DNA of 64,000 bases from Methylocapsa acidiphila B2 (lineage in GTDB: Bacteria; Pseudomonadota; Alphaproteobacteria; Rhizobiales; Beijerinckiaceae), in assembly GCF_000427445.1 (NCBI RefSeq), contig NZ_KE386496.1, positions 372,001 to 436,000 of the forward strand. Reading direction: 5' to 3'. The position numbers and the translations under genes were made by a program. The notes below the pieces were generated by a model that saw only the letters and a list, made by a program, of their open reading frames with translations, ran no database searches and had not been told where the DNA came from. Of this stretch, positions 2,022-37,524 are shown one piece after another; within the stretch, counting starts at the first letter, position 1, and each line of letters begins with the position of its first letter.

Positions 2022-2853
2022 GGGCACCGTCACATTAACGGACATGGAGCGAAAGGTGGGGTAAGCATGAGCGATGTCGAACCTTCGCGAACCGCTTTAT
2101 CGGCGTCATCGGTTTCCCCCTGAGATCATCAGCTATGCGGTCTGGCTCTATTTCGGCTTTCCCTTGAGCCTCCGCATGGTCGAGGAGATGCTCGCGGTGC
2201 GAGGCATATGCGTGAGCTACGAAACCGTGCGGCGATGGGCGATTAAATTCGGCCGGACGTTCGCCAGTGAGATCCGCCGAAGGGCCCCGGCGCGCGGGGA
2301 CAAATGGCATCTGGACGAAGTCGTGGTTTCCATCGCTGGCGAGACGTACTGGCTCCGGCGGGCGGTCGATCAGCACGGCTTCGTTCTCGACGTTCTGATC
2401 CTCAAGCGGAGAGATCGTCGCGCAGCGCAGCGTCTCCTGACGAAACTTCTGAAACGTGCAGGCGTTCCTCCTCGGGTCATGATCACCGACAAGCTTAAAT
2501 CCTACGGCGCGGCGCGGGCGGAAGATGGGCCTTCAGGTTGAGCATCGCCAGCATAAAGGCCTGAACAATCGGGCCGGGAATTCGCATCAGCCGACAAGGC
2601 GACGAGAACGGATCATGAAGCGTTTCAAGTCGAGAGCGCAGGCGCAACGGTTCTTGTCCAGCCACGATCAAGTCGCCAATCTCTTTCACATCCCTTATCC
2701 AGAATACACAACAGCGGACGAGCGCCACGCCGCGAGTGAACGCGCTTTTACGGCGTGGCGCGCAATTTCCAAAGCAGCCCTCGCCGCATGATATAGGCTC
2801 GGCCCCATATGGACGCCCTCTTCTACCTGAGTCAGGCTAATGTGACGGTGCCC
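2022..2853 (+). mobile_element. IS6-family element, degenerate, 832 bp
   Basis: The ends are inverted: GGGCACCGTCACATTA at 2022-2037 is mirrored by TAATGTGACGGTGCCC at 2838-2853. The interior is one transposase gene of the IS6 family, now frameshifted (see next entry). No 8-bp target duplication is seen (GCATTGAC on the left, CTCGATGA on the right), so a flank has probably been rearranged. A second, truncated copy of the same element lies at 41798-42036, where the adhesin pseudogene reads into it. Confidence 0.75.
2074..2791 (+). pseudogene. IS6-family transposase, frameshifted and with a mutated catalytic Glu
   Basis: Two overlapping frames together make one IS6-type transposase. The first (2074-2541) holds the N-terminal helix-turn-helix, the first catalytic Asp (WHLDEV) and the second (MITDKLKSY). 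It shifts frame at about 2508-2520, where one extra base seems present in a GC run. The second frame, up to 2791, continues LQVEHRQHKGLNNRAGNSHQ. In the family the last motif reads NNRAENSHQ, with Glu as the third catalytic residue; here that residue is Gly. The enzyme is therefore doubly dead: frame broken and DDE changed to DDG. The ATG at 2074 (MSNLREPLYRRHRFP) matches the family's usual start. Confidence 0.8.
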
Positions 2854-2949
2854 CTCGATGATGCGTAGCCCGTCCCTGATCGGAGATCGATCCGCGTCAT
2901 TCGGACCTCGCCCGTCAACGAGGGCGGCTCAGCAGTCGCGCAAGATGCA

Positions 2950-3420
2950 GAATCTCGCGATGGGCGCGGCTCATGGCAAAAAGACAGGAGCTGTCGGAAA
3001 GAAGATTCGCGAGCTGCGGATAGATGGCGTTTTCGTCCGCACGCTCGCATGCCGCTTGAGCTGCCGGAGAATGGTCGTGTCGCTGGCCGCCATGCCCAGA
3101 CAGCACAGCAGCCTTTCGCTGACGCGGCCGCCAGCGGCGTGTCCAAAGAGCCGCAGGAACTCGCCGACGCGGCGTGTTCACCGAGCGAAAGCGGGCGGCG
3201 CCTGTCAATTTCTCGATGACGGTCTTCTGCCCACATTCCTCGTTGCGGCATCTCCAGCGGCCTGTCCGTCCGCAGCCGGACGATCACCGGCGCGCTCTGG
3301 AGCGGAAGATCCTGCAAGCGCCGCACGTGTCAACTGTGCCTCAACGTCGATTGCGTCGCGCACCTCGGGCAAGATCGCGCCCCGGTTCCTTGCGCCGAAA
3401 CAAGCCAACGTCCGTGGAAA
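2950..3420 (-). pseudogene. ISL3-family transposase remnant, several frameshifts
   Basis: Read across frames on the minus strand, this stretch gives DLPLQSAPVIVRLRTDR, then a Cys-containing stretch (CRNEECGQ), then AAGGRVSERLLCCLGMAASD followed by TTILRQLKRHA. Together they follow the N-terminal third of ISL3 transposases: a short zinc-binding region, then the AGGxxGxRLaxxLG-type segment before the catalytic core. No single frame covers more than about 30 residues of the match, so it is a decayed fragment. It begins about 100 bp right of the IS6 element. The remaining bases to about 3570 show no gene. Confidence 0.5.
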
Positions 3421-3826
3421 AATTCGACGCCGCGCACCTCAATCCCCGGCCCAAAGGACAATTTCGATTTTTTTTCTCCATGCCCTATCAGGACAAAAAG
3501 CGCCACCTATGCAATATCAAGTACGCAAAGTGAAGCAAACCCCTAGATCTGGAACAATCAAGGTGCGATGATCACTTGCGTCAGGCAGCGGGGGGATGGA
3601 AAATCTATCTCGACCTCACGCGCTGAAGGCGCGATTAGCAATGTCGTCATAAGCGGCATGAATAGACGCCGACAGATGCGATGGTCGGCCCCGCGGCGCG
3701 CACCGGGTACCGCAGGTGCGAACGCCCGTGCTTGACGGCCGCGGCGGCTCTCGGCCGTTCGAACTGCCGCCTAAGACCCAAGCGTTTTGCTCCCCGCAAA
3801 TTGACTTGGTCAAGATCGAGGTTTTC

Positions 3827-4540
3827 ATGCGGCTTCTTGCAATCGAAGACGAGCCCAGGCTCGGGCAGTTGATCGTATCAAACCTAACGCAAGCGGGGTT
3901 TGCCATAGACTGGTCGCAGACGTTAGGTGAGGGGAAGGAGTTTGTGGCGGCAAATTGCTATGATCTCATTTTGCTCGACCTGAGGCTTCCCGATGGGAAC
4001 GGCCTCGATTTCCTTAGAGCCCTCCGGCAGAGCCGTAACAATGTTCCCGTCGTCATCTTGTCAGCTGCGGACACCGTAGATGATCGTGTGATCGGCCTAA
4101 CAGAAGGTGCTGATGACTATATCGTAAAGCCGTTTTCCTCTTCCGAATTGGTCGCCCGAATACGTACCGTCTTGAGACGGCCCGGGGCAGCGCTTGGGAT
4201 CAACCTTGTCTGTGGAAATGTCGAATTCAACACCGTCAGCTCAGCAGTTTCTATCGGGGGTGCTCCGATCCAAGTGCCGCGTCGCGAACTCTCCATCCTC
4301 GAAGCGCTTATGCGGGCGAACGGTCGAGTAGTTACCAAAGCTGCGCTTGAGGAAGCCGCCTACGCCATGGATAACAATCGGCAGTCCAATGTCATTGAAT
4401 CGCACCTGTCCCGGCTTCGTCGTCGCCTGGAATCTGCCGACGCACAGATTAGTATCAGAGTGGCTCGTGGCATTGGCTATCGCCTGGAGGAGACAAGGGA
4501 CCAAAATGCGGTATCTGACGAATTCTCCAGCATCCCTTAA
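3827..4540 (+). CDS. OmpR-family two-component response regulator
   Basis: 237 residues from the ATG at 3827 (MRLLAIEDEPRLG). The receiver domain (about 1-120) has the acidic pair at E7/D8, phospho-acceptor D51 (LILLDLRLPDG), S79 and K101 (DDYIVKPF). A winged-helix DNA-binding domain follows (about 130-225; QSNVIESHLSRLRRRLE, RGIGYRL), so this is the TctD/QseB/PmrA-like branch. An upstream in-frame extension is open but lacks receiver-like sequence, and the REC fold begins at this Met. It overlaps the following kinase gene by 35 bp, the usual regulator-kinase operon. The signal sensed is unknown. Confidence 0.9.
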   Translation: MRLLAIEDEPRLGQLIVSNLTQAGFAIDWSQTLGEGKEFVAANCYDLILLDLRLPDGNGLDFLRALRQSRNNVPVVILSAADTVDDRVIGLTEGADDYIVKPFSSSELVARIRTVLRRPGAALGINLVCGNVEFNTVSSAVSIGGAPIQVPRRELSILEALMRANGRVVTKAALEEAAYAMDNNRQSNVIESHLSRLRRRLESADAQISIRVARGIGYRLEETRDQNAVSDEFSSIP

Positions 4541-5963
4541 AGCAAGACTGCTTGCTGCGCAGTGTGTTGTCTTCGTTGCAGCATTGCTGGCCTTCATCGG
4601 CACATATTTGGCATTTGAAAAAGGGGATATGCGATATCATGTCATCGATGCTACGTATGATTTGACCCATCAGTTGGCGCGGTCGATTGTCAAATCGCCA
4701 GATGGCTTTCCCGAGTTCGCAATCCCAATCAGTCTCGCCCACGAAATCGAACGGTATCCTCATGCGCAATATGGGGCCATCGATGAAGCGACAGGCGGCG
4801 CAGTCGTCAGTCCCGGGCAAGCAATGCCGCCGGCCGAATTGCCAAAAGAGCCGAATGTCTCCGAGGGATGGTTTCGCTATGTCGGATCGGACAATGTTCC
4901 GCGCAACGGCGCTTTCAAACGGGTAATAACGCCCTACGGTTCCTATCGCGTTTATTTCGTGCAGGTAGAATCCGTGTTTGGTCTGACATTAGCGGGCCTG
5001 GAAGACGAATTACACGACGAGATATTCCCTGTCTTTTTGCCAATGATGATAATCGGCCTACTCGTCACGTGGAATACCGTCCGGAGGGCGCTGCGGCCAC
5101 TGCAACGCGCATCGGATGAGGCGGCGACGATATCGATGGATCGTCCCGATAGTCGAGTATCGACCGATCGTTTGCCAGCCGAGATATTGCCTTTAGTCAC
5201 CGCGATTAACAAGGCGATCGGCCGTCTCCAGGCCGCTCTCGCGCAGCAACGGCGCTTCAGCGCCAACGCCGCCCATCAATTGAGAACGCCGCTCGCGATC
5301 CTGCGAACAAGGATCGATGGGCTTCCGCCCACGACGGTACGGACCGAGCTTTTGCGCGACGTCGATCGCATGACGCGTCTCGTCAGCCAGCTTCTCACGG
5401 CCGCCCGCCTCGAGGCGGGGCAAATGGCAAATTTTGAAGAAGTCGACCTGACGGAATTCGTCAGACGAATACTGGCCGAAATTGCGCCGCTCGCCCATGC
5501 CGCTGATCGAGATCTGGAACTTGATTCGCCAGGCAAAGTGACTGCGATAGTAAGCGCCTCGGCTCTTGAGGAAGCTGTTCGCAACCTCGTCGACAATGCC
5601 CTACGCCATACCCCGCCCGGCAGCACGGTAAGTGTCTCCTTGCAGCCTGGCGCGACGATCGAGGTTCGTGATAGTGGGTCCGGCGTGCCTCTAGAGCTCC
5701 GCGGGCAAGTCTTTGAGCCTTTTTGGTCGGCTGCGCGCAAATCTGAAGGAGGCTCCGGACTCGGGCTGGCGATTGTGCACGAGGCGATGCAGGCCCAAGG
5801 CGGTTCGGTGGAAATTGCCGACGCAAAGGGTGGGGGAGCCATCTTCCGACTCGCGCTCCCACAGGATTCGATGCTCGTACGAGGACTCGGCCTTGCGTCA
5901 GTCGACGCCTCCCACGCGGCTGGGACGGCGATGGATCCTGGATTTTCAGCTACCAAAGCCTAG
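4506..5963 (+). CDS. Sensor histidine kinase partner of the preceding regulator
   Basis: 485 residues from the ATG at 4506, preceded by AAGGGA with 5 bases spacing; the frame is open further upstream but inside the regulator gene. Domain order: TM helix (about 15-35), periplasmic sensor region, second TM (about 175-195), HAMP-like linker, DHp domain with phospho-acceptor H257 (AHQLRTPLA), and a catalytic ATPase domain with N-box NLVDNALRHTPPGS, G1 RDSGSGVP and G2 GGSGLGLAIV. The overall plan is that of TctE/QseC-type kinases, which often sense carboxylates or cations. All key residues are present, so the pair should be functional. Confidence 0.9.
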   Translation: MRYLTNSPASLKARLLAAQCVVFVAALLAFIGTYLAFEKGDMRYHVIDATYDLTHQLARSIVKSPDGFPEFAIPISLAHEIERYPHAQYGAIDEATGGAVVSPGQAMPPAELPKEPNVSEGWFRYVGSDNVPRNGAFKRVITPYGSYRVYFVQVESVFGLTLAGLEDELHDEIFPVFLPMMIIGLLVTWNTVRRALRPLQRASDEAATISMDRPDSRVSTDRLPAEILPLVTAINKAIGRLQAALAQQRRFSANAAHQLRTPLAILRTRIDGLPPTTVRTELLRDVDRMTRLVSQLLTAARLEAGQMANFEEVDLTEFVRRILAEIAPLAHAADRDLELDSPGKVTAIVSASALEEAVRNLVDNALRHTPPGSTVSVSLQPGATIEVRDSGSGVPLELRGQVFEPFWSAARKSEGGSGLGLAIVHEAMQAQGGSVEIADAKGGGAIFRLALPQDSMLVRGLGLASVDASHAAGTAMDPGFSATKA

Positions 5964-6775: not shown

Positions 6776-8293
6776 ATGAACCGGATGGCTATCAAAACTA
6801 TGGCGCTACAAGCATCTTCAGTCTCGCAGTCTGGCCGATGCCCGCTTGCGTTCGCGGAGAGATTCTCGCCGCTGCCGGGTTGCTTTGCTTCCCCCAGTCG
6901 GCGTGACGGTCTGGCAATCGGAATACCAACGTTGATCGCCTTGGCGCCGATGCTGGGTCATCGCCTCGATGATCGGAAAATTGTAGCCAGACGACAGGCT
7001 TCCGACCTTGCTTCGCATTATGCCCTGGCGTCGGAAATTCCATTGCCTGCCGGAGTGGACCTAAAGGACTTTTTTGTCGCGCCGCTCGACATTTTGCCGT
7101 TTCGACGAGCTGGCCAGCGGCGCTTTCAGCTGCTTGAGCTCAATGGAACTGGAATCGGCGGCCTGACCAATATGCCGGTCGAATTAGTCGAAGAAATCCT
7201 CGATACGATCGGTGAGATCGGAAATGCCTGCAAAGGGCCAGCGCCGCTCGTGGTGGTGGCGTCTTCAGGACGGGAGGCGATGGGCGATCGCAAGCCTAGT
7301 CACCTGCTGCATGAGAAGCTTCTATTCGTCGATCGGATCGCCCGGGCTCTGGAAGAGCGCCTTGGCGATGTCGAAATTCTCGCGCTTGATACGCTAGTTG
7401 CGAATGGCGGGTGGCGAGGCCCCTCCCGTCCGACTGTGCTCCTGGGATACACCCGAGAGCTAGTTTCGCACACTCATGTCATCTGCGGTATGCCGCGTTT
7501 GTTCGGCCGCAGGGTTGCTGGAATTGTCAATGACCGGTTCCTGTTCAATCTGACAGCGGCATATGGCGCCTTGGATGTCGACTCATTCTTACCAGCCAAC
7601 CGGTGCTATGAATCCGGAGCTGACAAGGCGACCGCCTACCGCCATGTAAATTCCTTCGCCGCCCGCAATACCTTCGACGAGGTGGGTGCAGCAATCCACT
7701 TCGACGTTTGCAAAGATGCAGAAGGCCTAATCGAAACCGTCCAGACTCGCCTCGGCCGCGGCGAGCAGATCGTCATCAAGCCGAGCGGCACGGGGCACGG
7801 CGACGGCATCGAGTTCTTCTTCGGCGGCGAAGACGAAGAAGTTATCCGAGAGCGGTTAGGGCGCTCGCTGGCCGTCGTTCATGAACGTTACGGACAAGGC
7901 GCCGGCTTCCCCTACGCCGCGACGGAATATCTGGACGCCGAAGTGATCAGGACGCCGGGCCATATCTTGAAGGGCTGCAAATTTGAGCTGCGGATCGTCG
8001 TTTACCGCAGAGGCTCGATGTTGCGGGCAGTTCCGTCAATCGCTAAGGTGGCGCCGGAAGTCTGGGATGCGCACAATCCGACGCGCGGTTCCCTTATCAA
8101 CAATATTTCTGCCTCGGTCAGGGGCGAAAAGACCGGCGGCGCGGATCATCTGCTGCCGTTGTGCCTGCCGGAGACGCTATCCATCCTAGATCTCGATGAG
8201 GACATTCTGACCAAATTGTGCCGTTGGGGGACAGGTTATGTCGCCCATGTCCTTTCGGAAACTCGGCGCCCGTCGTCCACGGTGGGCCTGTGA
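6776..8293 (+). CDS. ATP-grasp-like ligase, first gene of a coupled trio
   Basis: About 505 residues; the first 40 may be too many, and M4 or M9 are alternative starts. Motifs suggest an ATP-grasp fold: ELNGTGIGGLTN near residue 122, a lysine loop with a Gly-rich turn IVIKPSGTGHGDGIEFF near 334, an acidic strand FELRIVVYR near 404, and a metal-binding type SLINNISAS near 442. These resemble the order in ATP-grasp carboxylate-amine ligases, but I cannot name the subfamily. The stop overlaps the start of the next gene (TGATG at 8291-8295), which in turn overlaps the MFS gene, so the three are translated as a unit. Inference: it ligates an amine or carboxylate onto a peptide or small molecule that is then exported. 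Confidence 0.65.
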   Translation: MNRMAIKTMALQASSVSQSGRCPLAFAERFSPLPGCFASPSRRDGLAIGIPTLIALAPMLGHRLDDRKIVARRQASDLASHYALASEIPLPAGVDLKDFFVAPLDILPFRRAGQRRFQLLELNGTGIGGLTNMPVELVEEILDTIGEIGNACKGPAPLVVVASSGREAMGDRKPSHLLHEKLLFVDRIARALEERLGDVEILALDTLVANGGWRGPSRPTVLLGYTRELVSHTHVICGMPRLFGRRVAGIVNDRFLFNLTAAYGALDVDSFLPANRCYESGADKATAYRHVNSFAARNTFDEVGAAIHFDVCKDAEGLIETVQTRLGRGEQIVIKPSGTGHGDGIEFFFGGEDEEVIRERLGRSLAVVHERYGQGAGFPYAATEYLDAEVIRTPGHILKGCKFELRIVVYRRGSMLRAVPSIAKVAPEVWDAHNPTRGSLINNISASVRGEKTGGADHLLPLCLPETLSILDLDEDILTKLCRWGTGYVAHVLSETRRPSSTVGL

Positions 8294-8451
8294 TGAAGCG
8301 GCGGATCTTTTCGCTTCTCGAAATCTTGCTTGGTATCGCCTTGTTGCGAGCAGCCCGCCGCGCTCACCGCCAGCGGGTCGGTCTGGTCCATAGCAAGGAC
8401 TGTCTACTAGAATTTGGAGACGCCCGCCCGCATCGGGTGGGCGCCGCATGA
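8293..8451 (+). CDS. 52-residue protein sandwiched between ATP-grasp-like and exporter genes
   Basis: Its ATG overlaps the stop of the ATP-grasp-like gene by one base, and its TGA overlaps the ATG of the MFS gene (ATGA at 8448-8451). Such double coupling argues strongly that it is translated. It starts MKRRIFSLLEILLGIALLRA, a basic N-terminus and a hydrophobic helix. Then come an Arg-rich stretch and a C-terminal part containing HSKDC, LLEFGDARPH and RVGAA. It could be a precursor peptide modified by the ATP-grasp enzyme, a small membrane partner of the transporter, or just a coupling ORF. Nothing known is recognised. Confidence 0.55.
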   Translation: MKRRIFSLLEILLGIALLRAARRAHRQRVGLVHSKDCLLEFGDARPHRVGAA

Positions 8452-9755
8452 CAGGGCGAGCGGCGCCGCTGCCACGGGCATGGCGGATTTATGCCGTCTG
8501 CAATTTCATCAGCCAGATCGGGACCTGGATGCAGTCGACGGCGCAGGCGTGGCTGGTCCTCGAACTGACGGGGTCGTCGGAGCTGCTCGGCCTTTTGGTC
8601 GCAATCCAATATTTTCCGGCGGTCGTTTTGGCCATACCGGCAGGGAAAGTAGCGGATCGGTGGGGTAGACGAAACCTTTTGCTGTACGGCCAGGCCGCGA
8701 TGGCGATGCTGGCTGGAGGGCTGGCGGCCGTCGTGGCGGCCGAGAAAGCCATTTATCCCGTTCTCGCAGGCTTTGCGTTGCTGCTCGGCATTGGCAACGC
8801 GCTATCGCAGCCAGCCCGCATCGCCATGGCCGCGACTTTGGCTGGTGGAGAAGGCGCCGGAACTCACGGGCGCGTGAGAGCGGCAGGGATGGCGACGCTG
8901 TCTTTCAATCTCGCACGTATCTTGGGGCCGGCTCTGGCGGGTTTCGCAATCGCCGCATATGGTCCTACTTTCGCCTTTGCAATCAACGCCCTCTCTTTCC
9001 TTCCGCTTCTTCTGTTTCTTGCCGGCATGGATGCGGACGACCGGGTCTCGTCGAGCCTGCGGGGCTCCGGCCGTGCGGCGTTCAGTCTGTTATGGACCAA
9101 TTTGTCGACGCGGATTCCCCTGCTGACGGTGGCTGTAGTCGGGGTGTTCGCAATCAATGTGCAAACCCTCGTGCCGGCTTATGCGCGGTTCGGGCTGGGG
9201 CTCGATGCCAACGGTTTCGGATTGCTAATGGGCGCGTTCGGCGTCGGGGCCTGTCTTGGAGGATTTCTGCAATGGCGGTGGCCCGCCGCCTCGATCTGGC
9301 GCCCGCTGGCCGCGGCTGCGGCGCTCGGCTTATGCCTTGCCGCTTTGTCGGCGACCCATCGATTTCCGCTGGCCGCTCTCATCCTGACGGGATTTGGCGT
9401 CTGCACAGCGACCGTGCTTTCCTCAGCCTCGGCCGCGGTTCAGCGTTTAGTTCCCGATCATCTGCGCAATGCCGCCACCGCCTTGCAGGTGACGATTGTG
9501 CTTGGCGCCAATCCGTTGGGAAGCGCCCTGACAGGGTGGATGATCGAGCTTTTTGGCCCGGATGGCGGCAGCGCCGCGCTTGGCGCCATCACCCTCGCTG
9601 CCGTCATGGCTCTCACGCTTACCCGTCGTCTTCATGCAGTCGGTGCACTGAACGCCGTCAGACACAGATTCGCGCAGAAGCTTCAGCCAGCTCGATCGAC
9701 TAGCGCGGCGAAGGCGGCTGTCAGGTCAGCCGGCACCGTGTCAGATAGCGCTTAA
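8448..9755 (+). CDS. MFS exporter (MFS_3/EntS-like)
   Basis: 435 residues with about 12 hydrophobic spans. The N-terminal YAVCNFISQIGTWMQSTAQA, LVLELTGSSELLGLL and PAGKVADRWGRRNLLL are hallmarks of the MFS_3 (enterobactin-exporter EntS / transmembrane secretion effector) group; the cytoplasmic loop 2-3 motif is GKVADRWGRR. Members export siderophores, peptides and other secondary metabolites from the cytoplasm. Coupled to the 52-residue gene by a 4-bp overlap, it is the likely exporter for whatever the ATP-grasp-like enzyme makes. Complete and apparently intact. Confidence 0.85.
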   Translation: MTGRAAPLPRAWRIYAVCNFISQIGTWMQSTAQAWLVLELTGSSELLGLLVAIQYFPAVVLAIPAGKVADRWGRRNLLLYGQAAMAMLAGGLAAVVAAEKAIYPVLAGFALLLGIGNALSQPARIAMAATLAGGEGAGTHGRVRAAGMATLSFNLARILGPALAGFAIAAYGPTFAFAINALSFLPLLLFLAGMDADDRVSSSLRGSGRAAFSLLWTNLSTRIPLLTVAVVGVFAINVQTLVPAYARFGLGLDANGFGLLMGAFGVGACLGGFLQWRWPAASIWRPLAAAAALGLCLAALSATHRFPLAALILTGFGVCTATVLSSASAAVQRLVPDHLRNAATALQVTIVLGANPLGSALTGWMIELFGPDGGSAALGAITLAAVMALTLTRRLHAVGALNAVRHRFAQKLQPARSTSAAKAAVRSAGTVSDSA

Positions 9756-10044: not shown

Positions 10045-10764
10045 ATGCATAAGATCAAATATCGATTCAGCGATCCCGGACTCAAACCGCGCCGGACGAA
10101 GCTAGATGTGCCTGGTTGGGGCGGAGGCCCAGAGCCTCGCAGGACCGGTTCCCACGAACAGCCATGGCATTGCATCCCCTTCACCGAAAGCGCACAATAC
10201 GGAATTGAACTGTTCTATCCGTTCGAGCAGGACCTGCGTGTGAGCACGCGGGATGGGCGCCTCGTAATCGAAGGCCGCTCGGACCCCGATGAGACAGGCG
10301 CCTATCAGCCGCCGTTCAGATCTTTCGGCGACCAATATTACACCTACCAAATACTTCTGGACCTAAAGGTTGAAGATGGGTTCGCATTTAGAACGGAACC
10401 ACATCCCCGCTTCTATACCGATGCGACCGACACCGTCCCCATCGCCGTGCCGGCGCTCTTGAGGAACTGGTGGCCCATGATGTTTTTTATGGTTTTCAAA
10501 TCGCCGAGCGAAGGCCGAACCCATATCTTCAGATTGGGCGAGCCCTTCGCGCAGATCATCGTCATCCCTGAAGATCCGGACTTTCAGCTGGTCCCGATGT
10601 CGGAAGAGGAGGCCGCTGAGCGCGAACTCCAAGCGCGGCGGATTTACAACTCCCGCTCGACGTTGTCGGCGGCAACCCAGTGGACTTCAACCACTAATAC
10701 GGTATTTGACGCAACCTATCGCCAGATCCACCGGGCGGCGACAGAGAAAAGCAGGAAGAAATAA
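10045..10764 (+). CDS. DUF6065-like protein, unknown function
   Basis: 239 residues, soluble, no signal peptide. Conserved-looking parts include WHCIPFTESAQYGIELFYPF (near 45), a GDQYYTYQILLDLKVEDGFAF segment, PHPRFYTDATDTVPI, and a strand pair FFMVFKSPSEGRTHIFRLGE with FAQIIVIPED. This order (WxxxPl..a...Gwe...P / f.tG..f.tp.g / GePfa.i.pvp) recalls DUF6065 proteins, found as accessory genes near tailoring enzymes, but the match is from memory. It lies 289 bp after the MFS gene on the same strand, perhaps in the same locus. It also resembles a jelly-roll fold. Function unknown. Confidence 0.5.
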   Translation: MHKIKYRFSDPGLKPRRTKLDVPGWGGGPEPRRTGSHEQPWHCIPFTESAQYGIELFYPFEQDLRVSTRDGRLVIEGRSDPDETGAYQPPFRSFGDQYYTYQILLDLKVEDGFAFRTEPHPRFYTDATDTVPIAVPALLRNWWPMMFFMVFKSPSEGRTHIFRLGEPFAQIIVIPEDPDFQLVPMSEEEAAERELQARRIYNSRSTLSAATQWTSTTNTVFDATYRQIHRAATEKSRKK

Positions 10765-10808: not shown

Positions 10809-11183
10809 CTACTCGGGCTGCCCATCATTTTCCTCATAATAGTGGTGATGATGATGATGATGGTGATGATGGTAGTAGTAATCGTACGGCGGATAATAAT
10901 GATGGTGATGGTGATGATAATAGGGATAGTCGGGATAGGCTGGGTAATATTGCGCTGCTCTCACATTTGCATTTCCTGAAGCCGTCTTGTTGGTGAATGC
11001 GCCTCTGGCCGCCGCGGCGTCTGCCGCACGTAGAAGGGCCGCCGCATTTGGTATGGGCTCCAGCAGTTCGGCGTAAGAGCCGGGGTTCATCAGCTTGGCG
11101 ACATTCTCCGTTGAGGCTTGCGCCGCGCTCCCCGACGCCACGGCGGATATTGCGCCAATCATTCCAACAATCTTCTTATCCAT
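10809..11183 (-). CDS. Secreted poly-His/Tyr protein
   Basis: 124 residues from the ATG at 11183 (MDKKIVGMIGAISAVASGSA), chosen over a GTG four codons upstream because AGGAAG sits just before it. A signal peptide (1-25, cleavage after AQA) is followed by about 55 ordinary residues, then a tail of His and Tyr with runs of six and ten consecutive His, ending DYYYHHHHHH...YYEENDGQPE. Such a tail can bind several Ni2+, Cu2+ or Zn2+ ions. It is convergent with the DUF6065-like gene (44 bp between stops). One of three secreted His-rich proteins in the window. Biological role unknown. Confidence 0.65.
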   Translation of the reverse strand: MDKKIVGMIGAISAVASGSAAQASTENVAKLMNPGSYAELLEPIPNAAALLRAADAAAARGAFTNKTASGNANVRAAQYYPAYPDYPYYHHHHHHYYPPYDYYYHHHHHHHHHHYYEENDGQPE

Positions 11184-11846
11184 CTTCTTCCTCACCGCAG
11201 GATTTCGTTTACGAAATCCGGGACCTGACAGTAGACGCGTCGGCGCTCAAGGCGCAAAAGCCAGTCGAGTCCACACGGATGACTATCCTTTGAGGCTCTT
11301 TTGAGGGAGATTTCGGTGCTACCCAAAATTCAAGCTTTTTGCGACGAGCGTTTTGGCGTCAGCCCGACAGCACCTTATGAATGCGCCCCTTCCGATGAAT
11401 TGGCCATGAATGGAATATGGCCCGCTGAGGTCAGCGCCGCGAAGGCCGCACCGGGGAAAACGGTTCGAGCCGGTTTAGAATCGAGCGTTAAGAATCATAG
11501 TGGGGGGGTCACCAAGAAATCATGGCGCGTCCGGCCGCTTCCTCGTGAGGATCTTGCGGCCTGTGAACATGGCCGACGTGATGCTGGATGCCGAAGGCCG
11601 ACCTGCCGTTGGCGATTTACGACCAAAGCCATACGCTCGAAGGATTTGTTCGGGCTTTCGACATCAGATGACGAAACCACGGAAATCCGGGCAGACCGCG
11701 TAGACTTCGACGCGGGATCTGAGGTTTTTCATAGGCGCTGGCTTCTGGCAGTTTTGGTCTCACGATTATGATCGTCGGTGTCGCTTGCTTGTCATCAATG
11801 TTAAAGTGGGCTGTCGATATGCGACCTTTTAATGATGTCGATTTGA
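11184..11846. other. Gap of about 660 bp, no gene recognised
   Basis: This contains the promoter region of the minus-strand His-rich gene and then debris. Frames up to 156 codons are open but have no ribosome site or family-like sequence, and open frames on opposite strands overlap over 11500-11916. I see nothing that can be named. Confidence 0.4.
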
Positions 11847-20120: not shown

Positions 20121-21902
20121 TCAAGCTGAGCTGCCGAGATGCGATCCTCGACCAGTCTCGTTGTTTGAACGGAAGCCCAAAAGCATTCTCTGTTCGACCC
20201 AATCGGCCGGCAGTCGCGGCAAGAGCCGCATCAGGGATTTGGCGGTAAGCTCAGATGGCTGTCGGCCGTTGACGAGCGCAGTCGTGATGTCCGGGGCCAA
20301 CCAGGGCAGGCGCAGGATCGAATAGAGGTGCGGCGCCGTCACGCCCTCGTCGTGCGCAAGGTCGCGTACGCTGAGCGCGGGATTCCGACTGAGCCGCTCC
20401 TGAACGCTATGGGCGCGCGCAAGAATGCGCAGAAGGCTCGGATCGGGCGCAGCCTGATCGGCGGCGCCCTCGATCAGCATGCGCATTTCGCGGCCGACGC
20501 GCTTGAGCGCCACAGGCGATGAGAGCGTGACGAGATCCTCGCGGGCGGCCGCTGGCGCGCAACCTTGCGCCTCGAAATTGATCGTTCCATGGAGAACCGC
20601 CATGAGTCGGGATCGGGCGAGCATGACGTTGAGACGATCGCGGCCGACTTCGATGCGGCACTGCAGTCTGGCGAGGATCGCTTTGATTGTCTGCGGCGCT
20701 GAACCGCCAAGGTCTTCGGCGATCTGACGGCCGGCTTCGATCAGCCGGCCGGCCGTCGCGATGTCGGCTTTGCAAGCGCATGCGTCGAGGATTGATCCGC
20801 CGTCGGCGAAGAAGTCGAGCAGCCTGGCAATCACGAGGGTTTCCAAATCGCCGGCCGGGATCCGTCGGCCGTACGATCCCTTTCCTTTTCCTTCCCCCCT
20901 CACAAGCGAAGAAGACACGTAGTAGCGGTAGCGCGCACCCTTCTTGACGGCATGGGTCGGTGTCAGCCGTTCGCCATTTTGATCGAAGACCATGCCGGCG
21001 AGCAGGCTCGGCGATTCGGCGCGCGCGCCGGTCACGCGATCCACGCGGTTGGCGGCGAGCGTCGCCTGAACAGAGTTCCAAAGTTGCGCGTCGACGATTG
21101 CCGTATGCTCGCCCGGATAGACTTCGCCCTTGTGGCTGATCTCGCCGCGAAACAGGCGGTTCTGCAGCAGGGCATAAAGCGCGCCGCGCGAAAAGCCCTG
21201 GCCGCCATATTCTGAACCGTCGGCCCGTAAGCGGCGCTTGCTGCCGATCCCGGCGTCGGCTAGCTCATCGCGTAGCGCGTGAACCGATGTCAGGACGAGA
21301 TAGCGCTGAAAGATATCGACAACGACAAGCGCCTCTTCCGCGTTGACGACAAGCTTGCGATCCTTGACGTCGTAGCCGAGCGGCGGCATGCCGCCCATCC
21401 ACATGCCCTTCTTCTTCGAGGCGGCGATCTTGTCGCGCACCCGCTCGCCGATCACCTCGCGCTCGAACTGCGCGAAGGAGAGCAGTACATTGAGCGTCAG
21501 CCGGCCCATGCTGGTCGTCGTGTTGAACTGCTGGGTGATCGACACGAAGGAGACCCCACGGCGATCGAAGACCTCGACGAGCTTGGCGAAGTCGGCGAGC
21601 GCGCGGGTCAGCCGGTCGACCTTGTAGACGACCACAACGTCGACGCGTCCGGCTTCGATATCGGCAATCAGCCGTTTCAGGGCCGGACGCTCCATCGAGC
21701 CGCCGGAATAGCCGCCATCGTCATAGTGGGTGGGGAGCGCCGACCATCCTTCGTGTTTCTGCGAGAGGATGAAGGCGGCGCAGGCTTCGCGCTGGGCGTC
21801 AAGCGAGTTGAAAGCCTGGTCGAGGCCTTCCTCGGTTGATTTGCGTGTGTAGATCGCGCAACGCGCCCTATTGGCGGCTCGTCGCTGAGTTGTTTCACCC
21901 AT
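20121..21902 (-). CDS. Large serine recombinase (triad A)
   Basis: 593 residues from the ATG at 21902 (MGETTQRRAANRARCAIYTR). The resolvase catalytic domain (1-165) contains nucleophile S22 in YTRKSTEEG, VDVVVVYKVDRLTR and FAQFEREVIGERVRDKI. The recombinase domain follows (about 190-300; MPPLGYDVKDRKL, FSRGALYALLQNRLFRGEI), then a C-terminal region with an HTH-like end (LSVRDLAHDEGVTAPHLYSI). It cuts and rejoins DNA at two att-like sites. It overlaps the DUF2924 gene by 8 bp and shares long identical stretches with the copy at 23349-25091, but has a 15-residue C-terminal extension. Confidence 0.85.
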   Translation of the reverse strand: MGETTQRRAANRARCAIYTRKSTEEGLDQAFNSLDAQREACAAFILSQKHEGWSALPTHYDDGGYSGGSMERPALKRLIADIEAGRVDVVVVYKVDRLTRALADFAKLVEVFDRRGVSFVSITQQFNTTTSMGRLTLNVLLSFAQFEREVIGERVRDKIAASKKKGMWMGGMPPLGYDVKDRKLVVNAEEALVVVDIFQRYLVLTSVHALRDELADAGIGSKRRLRADGSEYGGQGFSRGALYALLQNRLFRGEISHKGEVYPGEHTAIVDAQLWNSVQATLAANRVDRVTGARAESPSLLAGMVFDQNGERLTPTHAVKKGARYRYYVSSSLVRGEGKGKGSYGRRIPAGDLETLVIARLLDFFADGGSILDACACKADIATAGRLIEAGRQIAEDLGGSAPQTIKAILARLQCRIEVGRDRLNVMLARSRLMAVLHGTINFEAQGCAPAAAREDLVTLSSPVALKRVGREMRMLIEGAADQAAPDPSLLRILARAHSVQERLSRNPALSVRDLAHDEGVTAPHLYSILRLPWLAPDITTALVNGRQPSELTAKSLMRLLPRLPADWVEQRMLLGFRSNNETGRGSHLGSSA

Positions 21903-22386
21903 GGGGCCCTCCCTTGCCGCTGCTATCGCCATTCACCCTCGGCAAGCCGAAGAAGCGGGGGCCGGACCAATGCGCCGAGGTGATTTTCTTCGCGATTTGG
22001 GTCAGCGACGGATAGGTTTCGCCGGCGTATTCGAATCCATCCTCCAGCACGGTGACGGTGTGCGAGCGGCCATGCCATTCCCGAATCAGGCGGCAGCCGG
22101 GCTTCAGATCAGAGCCCGACGTCGGAGCCGCTCGACCCGTCTCGCGCAAGGCCTTGGCCATAGTCTGCAGCTTGCGCCTGGTCGCTTTCCCGAGTCCGCC
22201 ATGCTCGACTTCCTGAATCCGGTAACCGAGCGCTAGAACGAACAGGTCCCGGCTGATTTGCGGCGGCTCGCTGCGCCAGAGGCGTCGCCATTCCTGTCGC
22301 AACTCTTCGAGGCCGAGCGCGCGAAAGCGCTCGACCTCGGCTCGAAGCGCGGCGCGATCGAACGACGGCCGTGACATGCGGGTCAC
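21895..22386 (-). CDS. DUF2924 protein (triad A)
   Basis: 163 residues. A GTG start at 22386 overlaps the DUF3489 stop by four bases (GTGA); an ATG at 22377 is the alternative. DUF2924 signatures are visible: LRQEWRRLWRSEPPQISRDL, GLGKATRRKLQTMAKAL, LIREWHGRSHTVTVLEDGFE, TYPSLTQIAKKITSAHWSGP RFFGL. The C-terminal half looks like a small beta domain for DNA or protein contact. By context it is a fixed partner of this recombinase type. Biochemical role unknown. Confidence 0.8.
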   Translation of the reverse strand: MTRMSRPSFDRAALRAEVERFRALGLEELRQEWRRLWRSEPPQISRDLFVLALGYRIQEVEHGGLGKATRRKLQTMAKALRETGRAAPTSGSDLKPGCRLIREWHGRSHTVTVLEDGFEYAGETYPSLTQIAKKITSAHWSGPRFFGLPRVNGDSSGKGGPHG

Positions 22387-22772
22387 GCAGCTTTCCGGCG
22401 CGTCTTTTCCTTGCGCGGCGGCGCGTTGTCCACAATGCGGTAGATCCGGGCATCGCCCGGTTTTTCCGACGCTAGCGTCAGGCCGAGCTTCTTGCGCACC
22501 ACTGCCGCGAGGAAGCCGCGGACCGAATGCTCCTGCCAGCCGGTCGCCGTCATAATGGCGGCAAGTGTCGCGCCCTGAGGACGTCGGAGCATCGCGAGCA
22601 CCGCTTCCTGCTTTGTGCCCGCCCGCAGCGCAGGCTTTTGGCCGGGCGACGCAACGGCCGCGGCTTGTGCGTCGGCCTCGACCTTCGTGCTGGTGGGAGC
22701 GATGGGGGCGCCCGCCGCAGTCCGGCGGGTTTTCGGCGAGGCGATTTTATGCAGCGGTTTGCTGTCCGACAT
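22383..22772 (-). CDS. DUF3489 protein (triad A)
   Basis: 129 residues from the ATG at 22772 (MSDSKPLHKIASPKTRRTAA). A disordered Ala/Pro/Lys-rich head of about 55 residues leads into the DUF3489 winged-helix-like domain: [60 protein letters not shown]. Basic at both ends and HTH-like, it is a candidate DNA-binding regulator or recombination directionality factor of the triad. First gene of a three-gene operon with 4- and 8-bp overlaps. Confidence 0.8.
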   Translation of the reverse strand: MSDSKPLHKIASPKTRRTAAGAPIAPTSTKVEADAQAAAVASPGQKPALRAGTKQEAVLAMLRRPQGATLAAIMTATGWQEHSVRGFLAAVVRKKLGLTLASEKPGDARIYRIVDNAPPRKEKTRRKAA

Positions 22773-23348
22773 TTTTCGAGGATCCTTCTTGCGTTGGGAC
22801 GGCATGCGCCGTCACCACCGCAACCCCGCAATGGCCGCATCGCCAGCGGGGCAGGATCAACAAAGGCCAAAGGGTCCTTGTCTTGTGCAGACAGTGACGC
22901 TCTCTTCGCCGCGCAAGTCCACTCTTTTCTGAGGCTACATTCACACACGGGTCTGCTTCAAAAGGCGACCAAGCCCACCGTCTCTGCATCCGAGAGTTCG
23001 AATTCTGCTTGGCCAGCCAGTATATAACTAATTGATATTACATATATTTCTATTCCAGGCCCGCGCCTATGTCCCCGCGGAATGGCGGGGTTTTTCGGGC
23101 TGGCGCCGCATCGGATTTGCGGCGGAGACGGTTTGCCGCGCGCTCTCGGCTTCGGCGGTCCGAAAATCTCTCCGGGCCCATTTCGGGGTTTACTTTTTTC
23201 GCCGAAGTAGCAGCGGGTTTCGCGGCGAAGCCGGGGCGCATCGCGGCCAAGTTTGAGAGACCAGCGCCTAGAGCGCTTCCCGATCAGATGGAATCATCTG
23301 AACGAAAAGGAATCGCTCAAATTCATAGAATCGGAACATGCTCGGACG
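22773..23348. other. Conserved leader of triad A and inter-triad spacer
   Basis: The bases 22800-22950 match the corresponding leader of triad B (25920-26120). Shared blocks include GCCAGCGGGGCAGGATC, GACAGTGACGCT and AGTCCACTC, at similar spacing. Since this is upstream of both operons and mostly non-coding, it is a good candidate for promoter plus operator or an att site. The rest to 23348 contains a hairpin with T-run (23073-23095) and a repeat-like GAGCGCTTCCCGATCAGATG stretch of the sort found intergenically in alphaproteobacteria. Confidence 0.5.
23073..23095 (+). terminator. Rho-independent-type hairpin, plus orientation
   Basis: CCCCGC at 23073-23078 pairs with GCGGGG at 23085-23090, followed at once by TTTTT. 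This is a classic terminator shape, but the T-run is on the plus strand while all nearby genes run on the minus strand, so it would stop antisense or plus-strand RNA. Confidence 0.5.
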
Positions 23349-25091
23349 TCAGCGAAAGCCGAGCAGCTTTCTCTGTTCCGCCCAGTCGGGCGGCAGGCGC
23401 GGCGTCAGCCGCATCAAGGTCTTGGCGGTGAGCTGCGGCGGCTGTCGGCCGTTGACGATCGCCGTAGAGATGTCCGGCGCGAGCCAGGGCAGGCGCAGCA
23501 GCATATACAGATAGGCGGCGGACACTCCTTCTTCGCGCGCGACGTCATGCACGGTCAGCTCGGCGTTCTGGATCAGCCGCGCCTGGACATGGTGAGCGCG
23601 GGCGAGGGTCCGCAGCAAGCTCGGATCGGCCGTCCTCTGGTCATCGGCGCTCTCGACCAGCATGCGCATCCCGCGGCCGACGCGCTTCAGCGCCGCCGGC
23701 GCCGTCAAAGTCAGCATGTCGCCGGGCGCATTCGCCGGTTCGTGGTGCTGCGTCGCCGGATTGATTGACCCGGCCAGCAGTTCCGAAAGTGCGGTTTGAG
23801 AAAGTGCGATGCCGATGCGATCGGATCCGATTTCAACGCGGCAATGCAGCGCCAGGAGAATCGCTTTGACTTTGTCCGGCGCACCAGCGGCAAGCTCTTC
23901 CGCAACCTGACGGCCGCGTTCGATCAGGCGGCTGCATCCTGAACCGCTATCCGCTTCAGCCCCCATCGTGTCGAGGATCGCTCCGGGGTCGGCGAAAAAT
24001 GCGCGCAGCCTGTTGATCACCAATCCTTCCAGATCGCCGGCCGGAATCCGTCGGCATCTCGATGAGCTCTTTCCCGTTCCGGTGATGAGGGAGGTCGAAA
24101 CATAATAGCGGTAGCGTGCGCCCTTCTTGACCGCATCGCTCGGTGTCAGCCGCTCGCCGGCCTCGTCGAAGACCATTCCGGTCAGCAGGTTCGGATGGCT
24201 TGCGCGCCCGCCCGTGGCACGCTCTACCCGGTTTGCGGCGAGCGCGGCTTGGACCGCGTCCCACAGCGGCTGGTCGACGATCGCGGAATGTTCGCCGGGA
24301 TAGGACCCGCTCTTGTAGGCGATCTCGCCGCGGTAGAGGCGGTTCTGGAGCATCAGATAGAGCGCGCCGCGGGACAGCTTCTGGCCGCCATACTCCACAC
24401 CGTCGGGCCGCAGGCGGCGCTTGCTCTTGATCCCTGCCTCGGCAAGCTCGTCCCGAAGGGCATGAACCGACTTCAGCGCGAGATAGCGCCGAAAGATATA
24501 GAGGACGATGCCGGCTTCGTCCTCGTTCACGGCGAGCTTGCGGTCTTTGACGTCATAGCCCAAGGGCGGCATGCCGCCCATCCACATGCCTTTTTTCTTG
24601 GACGCGGCGATCGTGTCGCGCACCCGCTCGCCAATCACCTCGCGCTCGAACTGGGCGAAGGACAAAAGCACGTTCAGGGTCAGCCGCCCCATGCTCGTGG
24701 TGGTGTTGAATTGCTGGGTGATCGATGCGAAGGAGACGCCGCGGCGGTCGAAGATTTCGACGAGCTTGGCGAAATCGGCGAGCGCGCGCGTCAACCGGTC
24801 GACCTTGTAGACGACGACCACGTCGATCTGGCCGGCCTGGATATCGGGGATCAGCCGTTTCAGGGCAGGGCGCTGCATTGTGCCGCCGGAAAAGCCGCCA
24901 TCGTCATAGAGCGTCGGCGCGGCCGTCCAGCCTTCATGCTTTTGCGAGGCGATGAAGGCGGCGCAGGCTTCACGCTGGGCGTCGAGCGAGTTGAAGGCCT
25001 GCTCCAGGCCTTCCTCCGAGGATTTTCGCGTGTAGATCGCGCAGCGGATCTTTTTGGCGGCCTGGCGCGGCGTCTTTTCGGCTTCACCCAT
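23349..25091 (-). CDS. Large serine recombinase (triad B)
   Basis: 580 residues from the ATG at 25091 (MGEAEKTPRQAAKKIRCAIY). Same layout as the triad A enzyme: nucleophile S24 in YTRKSSEEG, VYKVDRLTRALADFAKL, EREVIGERVRDTIAASKKKG, recombinase domain (LSRGALYLMLQNRLYRGEIA), and a C-terminal HTH-like part (LTVHDVAREEGVSAAYLYML). Long blocks are nearly identical between the copies while the region about 330-480 is diverged, as expected for paralogues with different DNA targets. It overlaps its DUF2924 gene by 8 bp, exactly as in triad A. Confidence 0.85.
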   Translation of the reverse strand: MGEAEKTPRQAAKKIRCAIYTRKSSEEGLEQAFNSLDAQREACAAFIASQKHEGWTAAPTLYDDGGFSGGTMQRPALKRLIPDIQAGQIDVVVVYKVDRLTRALADFAKLVEIFDRRGVSFASITQQFNTTTSMGRLTLNVLLSFAQFEREVIGERVRDTIAASKKKGMWMGGMPPLGYDVKDRKLAVNEDEAGIVLYIFRRYLALKSVHALRDELAEAGIKSKRRLRPDGVEYGGQKLSRGALYLMLQNRLYRGEIAYKSGSYPGEHSAIVDQPLWDAVQAALAANRVERATGGRASHPNLLTGMVFDEAGERLTPSDAVKKGARYRYYVSTSLITGTGKSSSRCRRIPAGDLEGLVINRLRAFFADPGAILDTMGAEADSGSGCSRLIERGRQVAEELAAGAPDKVKAILLALHCRVEIGSDRIGIALSQTALSELLAGSINPATQHHEPANAPGDMLTLTAPAALKRVGRGMRMLVESADDQRTADPSLLRTLARAHHVQARLIQNAELTVHDVAREEGVSAAYLYMLLRLPWLAPDISTAIVNGRQPPQLTAKTLMRLTPRLPPDWAEQRKLLGFR

Positions 25092-25563
25092 CGCGCGCTC
25101 CCTTGTTCGGGCGCTCGGCGCCTGCCGCGGGCAGGCCGAAGAAACGCGGACCCGACCAATGCGCGCCGGTGATTTTTCTGGCGATCCTGGTAAGGGACGG
25201 ATAGATCGTCCCGCCATACTCGAATCCCTCCTCGGTCACCGTGACGGTGTGGGTGCGGCCGCCGCCCCATTCCCGGACGAGACGGGCGCCGGGCTTCAGG
25301 CTGAGGCTCGGCGTCGCGCCGACCCGGCCCGTCGCCTGCAGGGCCTTCGCCATGGTCTGCAGCTTGCGTCTTGTCGCCTTGCCGAGCCCGTCATGTTCGA
25401 TCTCCTGAAGTCTGTACCCGAGTGCAAGGACAAGCAGGTCGCGGCTGATCCTCGGCGGCTCGGAGTGGCAGAGCCGCCGCCATTCGCGTCGCAGGTCCTC
25501 GAGGCTGAGCGACCGAATGCGATCGATCTCGCGCTCGATCGCTCGTGTGTCTGTCCCAGCCAT
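25084..25563 (-). CDS. DUF2924 protein (triad B)
   Basis: 159 residues (MAGTDTRAIEREIDRIRSLS). It shares with its triad A paralogue the segments LRREWRRLCHSEPPRISRDL, LGKATRRKLQTMAKALQATG, HTVTVTEEGFEYGGTIYPSL and GAHWSGPRFFGLP. The N-terminal 20 residues differ fully. It begins 2 bp after the DUF3489 stop codon. Conserved order and spacing with the recombinase argue for a functional complex. Confidence 0.8.
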   Translation of the reverse strand: MAGTDTRAIEREIDRIRSLSLEDLRREWRRLCHSEPPRISRDLLVLALGYRLQEIEHDGLGKATRRKLQTMAKALQATGRVGATPSLSLKPGARLVREWGGGRTHTVTVTEEGFEYGGTIYPSLTRIARKITGAHWSGPRFFGLPAAGAERPNKGARDG

Positions 25564-25565
25564 GT

Positions 25566-25913
25566 CTAGGCGGCCGGTTGTGTCGAGGCCTTCGGCTTCG
25601 TTTTGGGCGGCTGCTTGTCGGTCACGCGATAGACGCGCTCGTCGCCGGCCTTTTCCGAGATCAGCGTCAAGCCGAGTTTCTTGCGCACCACGCCGCCGAA
25701 AAAGCCGCGCACCGAATGTTGCTGCCAGCCGGTCGCTGTCATGATGGCGGCGAACGTGGCGCCCTTTGGCTGTCGAAGGAGGGCGAGAACGGCCTCCTGC
25801 TTAGTCCCGCCGCGCGCGGAACCCGCGGGAACGATCCCGGTCCCTGCGGGCTCCTTCGCGCGGTTCTTCGTGCGGGCCAGTGTGATCTCTTCGGGGGCTT
25901 TGCGATTTGACAT
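25566..25913 (-). CDS. DUF3489 protein (triad B)
   Basis: 115 residues ([20 protein letters not shown]), shorter head than in triad A. Domain: [60 protein letters not shown]. The 3' tail is Lys/Pro/Thr-rich. Leads the second triad. The leader DNA before it (25914-26130) resembles that of triad A (see 22773-23348). Confidence 0.8.
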
Positions 25914-26211
25914 TTTGAGGGATCCTTGCGGGCTGTGGCGGCGTCATGCGCCGTCACCGCCGAAGCCCCACAATGGCGGCGGCGCCAGCGGGGCAGGATC
26001 CCGGATGGGGCCAACCGGCCCTTATCTCCTGGCGACAGTGACGCTTCCTTCGCGCTTGAAGTCCACTCCTTTCTGCGAAGAAAATCGACGGCCGAACGCC
26101 CGGTCTCTGCGTTGAAGAGTCGCTCTGGCGCTCACGCGTTTCTGCATTCAAGATGTGAATAAGCTGGAATAAGGGCTCTGACGCAATCTTGATGGCTATT
26201 GAGCTTTGCGG

Positions 26212-26547
26212 CTACACGGCGCCGATGACGCGGGCTTGAAGGAGATCCAGCTTTCCTCTGCCGTACATCTGGCGTTTTACGAGTTTGAGTTTGGTGATCT
26301 GACCTTCTGTCTGGCCGTTGGACCAGGGCGATGTGATCGCGGCGCTGACGGCCGCCTGGTCCTTGACGACGCCGTTGGCGAAGGAGGCTGCCAAGCCTGA
26401 TCTGGCCCGCTCCAGCCATGGCTCGAGATCGGCAAGAGACTTCTTGCGGATCATCATCTGGAAGGCGGCAATAATTTCTCTCGCCTCGACCAGCAAGGGC
26501 ACGCCTGCCTCGATCGCCGCGATAGTGACGGTTTCGTACTTGGAAAG
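26212..26547 (-). pseudogene. ISL3-family transposase, C-terminal fragment
   Basis: About 112 codons: [96 protein letters not shown]. The sPWSNGQ.EGQ.tKLKl.KRQMYGR.. motif is diagnostic for the end of ISL3 transposases. Its 5' part is lost exactly where the IS21 end begins (26548), so IS21 insertion or a later deletion cut it. Too little homologous overlap exists to say if it belongs to the same copy as the remnant at 2950-3420. Confidence 0.75.
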
Positions 26548-37419: not shown

Positions 37420-37524
37420 GACATTCTCTCAGTTTGAGCGCGCCAAACGAGCAGGCTGGCGCAAACCGCCAGCCGTCGGAGTCCCGGGCGTCCACGTGTT
37501 TAACAATAACGCAGGCGACGAATT

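What the first reader, a model, noticed from the sequence alone, without database searches (positions are those of the whole stretch)
6776..9755. ATP-grasp-like enzyme / 52-residue protein / MFS exporter trio, translationally coupled
Three genes are joined by TGATG and ATGA overlaps. The middle one is tiny, basic and hydrophobic at its N-terminus, and lies between an ATP-grasp-like ligase and an EntS-type exporter. ATP-grasp ligases make peptide-like products and also modify ribosomal peptides (graspetides), so this may be an unrecorded RiPP-like or amide-forming pathway with its own exporter. The small protein is not a known precursor type.
Basis: partly seen in the sequence, partly recalled or inferred. 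Interest (0 to 1): 0.8.

Follow-up and report, generated by a model that had tools for sequence, protein, structure and literature searches.

The report
Ligase-exporter gene pair, linker ORF
Two real neighbouring genes, a probable peptide- or amide-bond-forming enzyme of an uncatalogued family and a small-molecule exporter, are joined by a 52-codon reading frame whose protein sequence drifts freely, so it is probably a translational linker and not the suspected peptide precursor.

Summary
The three ORFs and both overlaps are as described. The 505-aa protein is under purifying selection and has no Pfam, NCBIfam or PDB match. A motif scan of genome contigs (84,980 species) gave three distant betaproteobacterial relatives (about 30% identity); their genomes added two paralogues. 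Invariant residues (D105, E121-x-N123, K335-P-x-G-x-G, L405-R406) lie in the order expected of an ATP-grasp ligase whose metal-binding last strands moved to the N-terminus. The fold is unconfirmed: one structure model failed, the second job was never accepted. The 435-aa protein is an MFS_3 exporter. The 52-residue ORF keeps length, frame and both overlaps in two other genomes (M. polymorpha plasmid, and one unnamed same-genus genome), but its amino acids evolve as if unconstrained (dN/dS 0.9-1.9; 20 of 52 identical to the most distant copy, while the exporter keeps 355 of 405). No such ORF follows the five betaproteobacterial family members. A RiPP precursor is unlikely; a translated linker coupling exporter to ligase fits best. 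Best reading: a bacilysin-like "ligase + exporter" unit, substrate unknown. In betaproteobacteria the three closest relatives sit beside CesT-type chaperones and an Asp/Glu racemase-like protein. Downstream, a DUF6065-like gene and a His-rich protein form a separate conserved pair.

The parts
6776..8293 (+). 505-aa probable circularly permuted ATP-grasp ligase; uncatalogued family
   Evidence: no known family; distant relatives and invariant motifs; dN/dS 0.22; codons 1-58 have 8 synonymous and 2 non-synonymous changes, supporting the ATG at 6776
8293..8451 (+). 52-codon ORF overlapping both neighbours; probable translational linker, not a conserved peptide
8422..8442 (+). 9-bp RNA hairpin (3-nt loop) just before the exporter start; identical in pRX1, register not kept in L099
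   Evidence: 71-nt stretch: z -2.2, 8 of 200 shuffles fold as well; L099 comparison by eye
8448..9755 (+). 435-aa MFS_3 exporter
   Evidence: PF05977 8.1e-43, above cut-off. TIGR00900 5.1e-29 and EntS NF007792 2.7e-13, both below their cut-offs; dN/dS 0.21
3827..4540 (+). OmpR-type response regulator upstream, conserved with pRX1
   Evidence: PF00072, PF00486 (scanned as 3716-4540). A regulatory role for the pair is inferred only
4347..5963 (+). sensor histidine kinase upstream, conserved with pRX1 (true start probably downstream of this first TTG)
   Evidence: HisKA, HATPase_c
10045..10764 (+). DUF6065-like protein, next gene downstream; a separate system (see Noticed in passing)
   Evidence: PF19541 7.5e-5, 22.8 bits, below its cut-off 26.6
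10809..11195 (-). His-rich secreted-type protein, convergent partner of the DUF6065-like gene
   Evidence: no NCBIfam match, (Pfam not scanned)

Best explanation
A ligase-plus-exporter unit. The 505-aa protein is an ATP-dependent carboxylate ligase of the ATP-grasp type: it would activate a carboxylate as acyl-phosphate and join it to an amine or hydroxyl. Here the strands bearing the presumed metal ligands (D105, E121, N123) precede the ATP-binding part (K335, Gly-rich loop, hinge around E384, L405-R406), i.e. a circular permutation. The small amide or peptide product leaves through the MFS_3 pump, as bacilysin leaves through BacE after BacD makes it. The 52-codon ORF is translated from the ligase stop (TGATG) to the exporter start (ATGA) so that ribosomes run on into the exporter gene; its peptide has no conserved role. 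Shown: gene order, conservation, protein families of the exporter and neighbours, invariant motifs, neutral evolution of the 52-residue sequence. Inferred: fold, catalysis, substrate, export of the product, coupling.
For: Invariant ATP-grasp-like residues in 6 of 6 aligned members, including a divergent Herbaspirillum paralogue. Window against the L057 relative: 144 of 489 positions identical, E 9e-56. MFS_3 exporter directly downstream. Purifying selection on both large genes. The ORF is open, ungapped and 52 codons long in 3 of 3 copies although window and L099 differ at 48 of 156 nt: neutral chance of no stop 0.31 (window to L099) or 0.22 (pRX1 to L099), of no indel about 0.03. Bacilysin BacD/BacE and the Hil operon (PF13535 ligase plus MFS) as precedents: passages of PMC3684760.
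Against: No Pfam match for any of the 6 members, no useful NCBIfam match (one member, E 0.059 to a trehalose-phosphatase model) and no ATP-grasp chain among PDB hits at E<=10. hhalign against 12 D-Ala ligase and 12 CP_ATPgrasp_2 sequences gave probabilities 0.1% and 0.2%, no better than the DUF6065 control (0.3%); no positive control was run and the profile is thin (Neff 2.1). The single-sequence AlphaFold model failed (pLDDT 33). No gene for an unusual substrate lies in the pair. The linker argument rests on 3 related copies and one indel rate; codon usage of the ORF lies at the 20th percentile of true coding segments and one antisense frame scores higher. The L099 ligase gene is incomplete.
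Confidence: 0.5

Rival explanations
1. RiPP pathway: the 52-residue protein is the precursor, modified by the ATP-grasp enzyme (graspetide- or pheganomycin-like) and exported by the MFS pump.
For: Gene order ligase, small ORF, exporter with overlaps; ORF kept open and equal in length in 3 of 3 copies.
Against: dN/dS 1.94, 1.26 and 0.91 in the three pairs against 0.16-0.36 for the neighbours. No leader/core asymmetry between window and L099: 10 of 26 identities in each half; pRX1 against L099 is 14 of 26 and 9 of 26. No Pro in the first 30 residues of the window and L099 copies, and the one Pro of the pRX1 copy is not followed by two hydrophobic residues, so no 'Phhx(1,2)h' leader motif (by eye; motif from passages of PMC8939145, which says it is found in only about half of precursors). 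No Ser or Thr in the last 20 residues of the pRX1 copy. No ORF of 30 or more codons overlaps the enzyme's stop in 5 of 5 betaproteobacterial family members.
Confidence: 0.05
2. The 52-residue ORF encodes a fast-evolving functional micro-protein (for example a membrane partner of the exporter) under relaxed or diversifying selection.
For: dN/dS above 1 in 2 of 3 pairs; open frame kept; net positive charge in all three.
Against: None of the dN/dS values is shown to exceed 1 significantly; the hydrophobic stretch fades in L099 (15-residue maximum 0.81 against 2.11) and gains a Pro in pRX1.
Confidence: 0.1
3. The 505-aa family is an enzyme of a different or new fold, and the motif resemblance to ATP-grasp is coincidental.
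For: No profile, PDB or Pfam match at any threshold tried.
Against: A K-P-x-G-[TS]-G loop, an E/D-L-R strand and a D...E-x-N strand pair are invariant or near-invariant across 6 divergent members; these are the recalled catalytic elements of ATP-grasp.
Confidence: 0.2
4. The ligase modifies a protein or polymer (for example the His-rich protein nearby) and the MFS pump does an unrelated job in the same operon.
For: His-rich and DUF6065-like genes lie next door and are part of the block shared with pRX1.
Against: The DUF6065-like/His-rich pair occurs without ligase and exporter nearby in 3 of 5 places.
Confidence: 0.15

Closest known systems
Bacilysin BacD (L-amino-acid ligase) and BacE (exporter); Hil operon HilD/HilE
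   Same: Ligase plus exporter: BacD ligates and BacE exports; the Hil operon can hold HilD, a putative PF13535 ligase, and HilE, a putative MFS transporter (passages of PMC3684760).
   Different: No sequence match of the 505-aa protein to PF13535 or any other Pfam model; no substrate-making genes between or beside the two; metal-binding strands apparently at the N-terminus.
Circularly permuted ATP-grasp families (CP_ATPgrasp_2, PF14403)
   Same: Same idea of a permuted ATP-grasp order (inferred here from motifs).
   Different: No Pfam match and no hhalign similarity to an alignment of 12 PF14403 sequences from related genomes.
Graspetides and pheganomycin-type RiPPs (PGM1)
   Same: ATP-grasp-like ligase beside a short ORF and an exporter.
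   Different: The short ORF is not conserved as a protein and shows no leader or core signature. PGM1 itself was not compared by sequence beyond the PDB and Pfam scans.
Uncatalogued betaproteobacterial homologues next to CesT-type chaperones
   Same: Same enzyme family, 29% identity over 489 positions.
   Different: Longer N-terminus; partner is an Asp/Glu racemase-like protein and CesT chaperones; no homologue of the exporter at E<=0.1 in the five stretches fetched.

Membership tests
ATP-grasp superfamily | Catalytic motifs: Lys plus Gly-rich loop, D/E-x-R strand, metal-binding Asp and E-x-N | tested here: met
   Invariant K335, P336, G338, G340, G344, L405, R406, D105, E121, N123 in 6 of 6. 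That these are the ATP-grasp motifs is recalled knowledge, and their order is permuted.
ATP-grasp superfamily | ATP-grasp fold or significant profile similarity | tested here: inconclusive
   No Pfam or PDB hit to an ATP-grasp protein nor in NCBIfam; thin-profile hhalign negative without positive control; AlphaFold pLDDT 33.
CP_ATPgrasp_2 (PF14403) | Match to the family model | tested here: not met
   No match; hhalign probability 0.2%.
Graspetide / RiPP | Conserved precursor with leader and Ser/Thr plus Asp/Glu core | tested here: not met
   features of the family from passages of PMC8939145.
Bacilysin-type ligase/exporter unit | ATP-grasp ligase adjacent to an MFS exporter | tested here: inconclusive
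   Adjacency to an MFS exporter in the window and pRX1 is shown; the ATP-grasp nature of the first gene rests on motifs only.
Bacilysin-type ligase/exporter unit | Ligation of amino acids and export of the product | not testable with these tools
   Needs enzyme assay and metabolite analysis.
MFS_3 (PF05977) exporter | Score above curated cut-off | tested here: met
   147.1 bits against a cut-off of 27.
EntS (NF007792) | Score above curated cut-off | tested here: not met
   49.7 bits against 324.
DUF6065 (gene 10045-10764) | Score above curated cut-off | tested here: not met
   22.8 bits against 26.6.

The most novel reading that the evidence does not exclude
An undescribed, circularly permuted ATP-grasp ligase family with two lives. 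In Methylocapsa-type methanotrophs it is a cytosolic ligase with its own exporter, making an unknown exported amide, its exporter coupled by a sequence-free linker ORF. In betaproteobacteria it is itself exported, with CesT-type chaperones and a racemase-like partner that carries a similar N-terminus, perhaps joining D-Asp or D-Glu to a target.
Probability: 0.25. Interest if true: 0.7.

Novelty: new variant of a known kind. Interest (0 to 1): 0.45.

Why it matters
If the fold is right, this is a ligase family missing from the Pfam, NCBIfam and PDB copies searched here, tied in one lineage to an exporter and in another to secretion-type chaperones and a racemase-like protein. The substrate question is then directly testable with one purified enzyme. 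The 52-codon ORF is a clean example of how a tiny coupled ORF beside an ATP-grasp-like gene can look like a RiPP precursor while three genomes argue that it is not one, a useful warning for genome mining. It would also be a simple natural test of a translational linker whose sequence is free.

Tried and rejected
Searches for relatives of the 505-aa protein: 397 genomes of the order (1 match, the window's own); 385 of the class at E<=0.1 (18 matched: own plus 17 short weak ones, of which 15 stretches are under 125 residues and the other two 139 and 157; I judged all 17 chance); 398 of the phylum with the two-row alignment A2 (own only; its sample overlaps the earlier ones); 364 of the class of G972 with A3 (0; the tool warns that an empty answer without a known positive shows nothing); 15 of the genus (2: own and a partial copy); 72,556 plasmid records (1 at E<=1e-3; 12 further short ones at E<=10); genome and viral scans with automatic peptide patterns (none). 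What worked was a hand-chosen DNA pattern for K-P-x-G-T-G-H-G-x-G-I: 5 stretches in genome contigs, of which 3 are true relatives and 2 chance; a shorter form in viral contigs gave 3 stretches, all chance. Relatives whose motif differs would be missed, as the two paralogues show.

Rejected: promoters and terminators around the trio (2 found against 2.4 expected and 2 against 5.3); the hairpin before the exporter as a conserved RNA element (identical in pRX1 but not kept in register in L099); the 496-aa product upstream of the DUF6065-like gene in Polymorphobacter as a ligase (it does not match); G540 and G171 loci as relatives of the unit. Codon usage could not decide the small ORF.

The second AlphaFold job (alignment A3) was never accepted: 'machine busy' in 16 calls. 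No fold search was run, because the only model was too poor.
Full report
1. Three ORFs on the + strand, 6776-8293 (505 aa), 8293-8451 (52 aa) and 8448-9755 (435 aa), overlap by TGATG and ATGA. The shared block holds a two-component regulator, the trio, a DUF6065-like gene and a His-rich protein.

2. The exporter. The 435-aa protein matches MFS_3 (PF05977, 8.1e-43, above cut-off); TIGR00900 and EntS match below their cut-offs. Of 165 plasmid records with a tblastn match, 164 are below 60% identity, so it is not a near copy of a pump in that collection.

3. The enzyme. The 505-aa protein has no Pfam match even at E<=10, no NCBIfam match at E<=1 and no PDB match at E<=10. Protein searches found only pRX1 (96.8%) and a partial copy in 1 of the 14 other genomes of its genus; the empty searches are counted in Tried and rejected. 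A DNA pattern for its Gly-rich motif then found three distant relatives in betaproteobacteria: Burkholderiales bacterium 67-32 (L057), Alcaligenaceae bacterium SAGV5 (L053) and Herbaspirillum sp. YR522 (L055). Searching those three genomes gave their full length, a second copy in SAGV5 and a divergent paralogue in YR522. Window against L057: 144 of 489 positions identical, E 9e-56. In the alignment of 6 (A4) P103, D105, E121, N123, G124, G126, G128, S164-G-R-E167, N252-D-R254, K335, P336, G338, G340, G344, L405 and R406 are among the invariant residues. From recalled knowledge of ATP-grasp enzymes, K plus a Gly-rich loop, a hinge (here TEYL, 383-386, not invariant), an E/D-L-R strand and, last, a D...E-x-N strand pair are the catalytic set. 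Here the D105...E121-x-N123 pair stands first, which suggests a circular permutation.

4. What is missing for the fold. None of the 6 members matches Pfam at E<=10; in NCBIfam one member has a single weak match (E 0.059). Profiles of the whole (3 hits at E<=10, all ribosomal protein S20) and of the C-terminal part (24 hits, best E 0.063, none of the listed names an ATP-grasp enzyme) find nothing. hhalign against 12 CP_ATPgrasp_2 and 12 D-Ala ligase sequences gives 0.2% and 0.1%, against 0.3% for the DUF6065 control; no positive control was run and the profile is thin. AlphaFold on the single sequence failed (pLDDT 33), and the job with relatives was never accepted. The ATP-grasp assignment is therefore motif-based.

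5. The 52-residue ORF. Between window and pRX1 it has 12 differences: 10 non-synonymous and 2 synonymous (dN/dS 1.94; codon positions 5/5/2). The ligase has 7/8/29, the exporter 7/6/22 and the DUF6065-like gene 2/4/21 (Fisher test against the ligase, P 0.009). One more genome of the genus (G1449, listed as 88% complete, 4% contaminated; L099) holds the last 82 ligase codons, the ORF and the exporter at 85.5% identity; the rest of its ligase gene is absent, which may be an assembly break. There the ORF is again exactly 52 codons with both overlaps and no indel, but only 20 of 52 residues match the window, against 355 of 405 for the exporter and 77 of 82 for the ligase end. dN/dS is 1.26 (window-L099) and 0.91 (pRX1-L099). 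Synonymous divergence of the ligase end from L099 (0.12) is lower than that of the exporter (0.41 and 0.42); I have no explanation.

6. Why not simply noise. With 48 random substitutions the frame would stay open with probability 0.31, or 0.22 starting from pRX1 (47 substitutions). Three stretches outside the genes show 10 indels for 141 substitutions, so no indel in 48 has probability about 0.03. That test assumes one indel rate: one stretch (289 columns, 28 substitutions) has no indel, and 7 of the 10 come from 2853-3826, whose non-coding status I did not check. Together this hints that length and frame are kept while the sequence is free, as expected if the ORF only carries ribosomes from the ligase stop to the exporter start. 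A 9-bp hairpin (8422-8442) lies before the exporter start and would be opened by such ribosomes; it is identical in pRX1 but shifts register in L099 (L099 by eye). Codon usage is indecisive.

7. Context in betaproteobacteria. In L057 the relative is flanked by two CesT-family chaperone genes (7.2e-12 and 8.1e-12) and an Asp/Glu/hydantoin racemase-family protein (3.3e-22); the same neighbours are seen by eye near the L053 and L055 relatives. PGA_cap and Beta-lactamase2 genes (L053) and an N-formylglutamate amidohydrolase gene (L055) lie further along. The neighbours of the two paralogues were not scanned. The N-termini of the enzyme and of the racemase-like protein resemble each other (hhalign probability 39%, E 3e-4). 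CesT proteins are type III secretion chaperones (recalled), so these relatives are probably secreted; no secretion apparatus was searched for. In 5 of 5 family members no ORF of 30 or more codons overlaps the enzyme's stop, and no homologue of the exporter (E<=0.1) lies in the five stretches of 12-20 kb fetched.

8. Function. The best-supported reading for the window is ligase plus exporter, as in bacilysin, where BacD ligates and BacE exports, and the Hil operon (passages of PMC3684760). The racemase-like partner in betaproteobacteria makes an acidic D-amino acid a reasonable first substrate to try; this is inference. A two-component regulator lies upstream and is conserved with pRX1, but regulation of the unit was not tested.

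9. Novelty. Searches of the paper library for DUF6065 (0 papers), Methylocapsa polymorpha (0), ATP-grasp with type III, effector and racemase (2, listing only), Herbaspirillum with type III effector and racemase (1, listing only), circularly permuted with ATP-grasp (11, listing only) and pheganomycin with ATP-grasp and peptide ligase (5 listed, passages of one read) showed nothing evidently about this family; most subscription journals are not held.

Noticed in passing
Possibly a metal-binding or modified-peptide system of its own.
   Followed up: partly
L057, L053, L055 (wider: L073, L069, L071): Betaproteobacterial relatives of the enzyme sit between CesT-family chaperone genes and beside an Asp/Glu racemase-like gene; a second large protein of unknown family recurs upstream (e.g. 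L057 180-2420, no Pfam match above cut-off).
   Followed up: partly
6776-6949: The annotation of the pRX1 copy starts 58 codons downstream, but codons 1-58 show 8 synonymous and 2 non-synonymous changes, so the ATG at 6776 is probably the true start.
   Followed up: yes
L099 from 5484: In one further genome of the genus the ligase gene is present only as its last 82 codons; the synonymous divergence of this piece from the window (0.12) is much lower than that of the adjoining exporter (0.41).
   Followed up: partly
20121-28934: Two large site-specific recombinase-like ORFs and an IS21-like pair, by eye from the ORF list: the region looks mobile.
   Followed up: no
36841-41464: UbiX-like and two UbiD-like decarboxylase ORFs in a row, by eye.
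   Followed up: no
41988-46288: Large filamentous-haemagglutinin-like ORF split over several frames, perhaps decayed, by eye.
   Followed up: no
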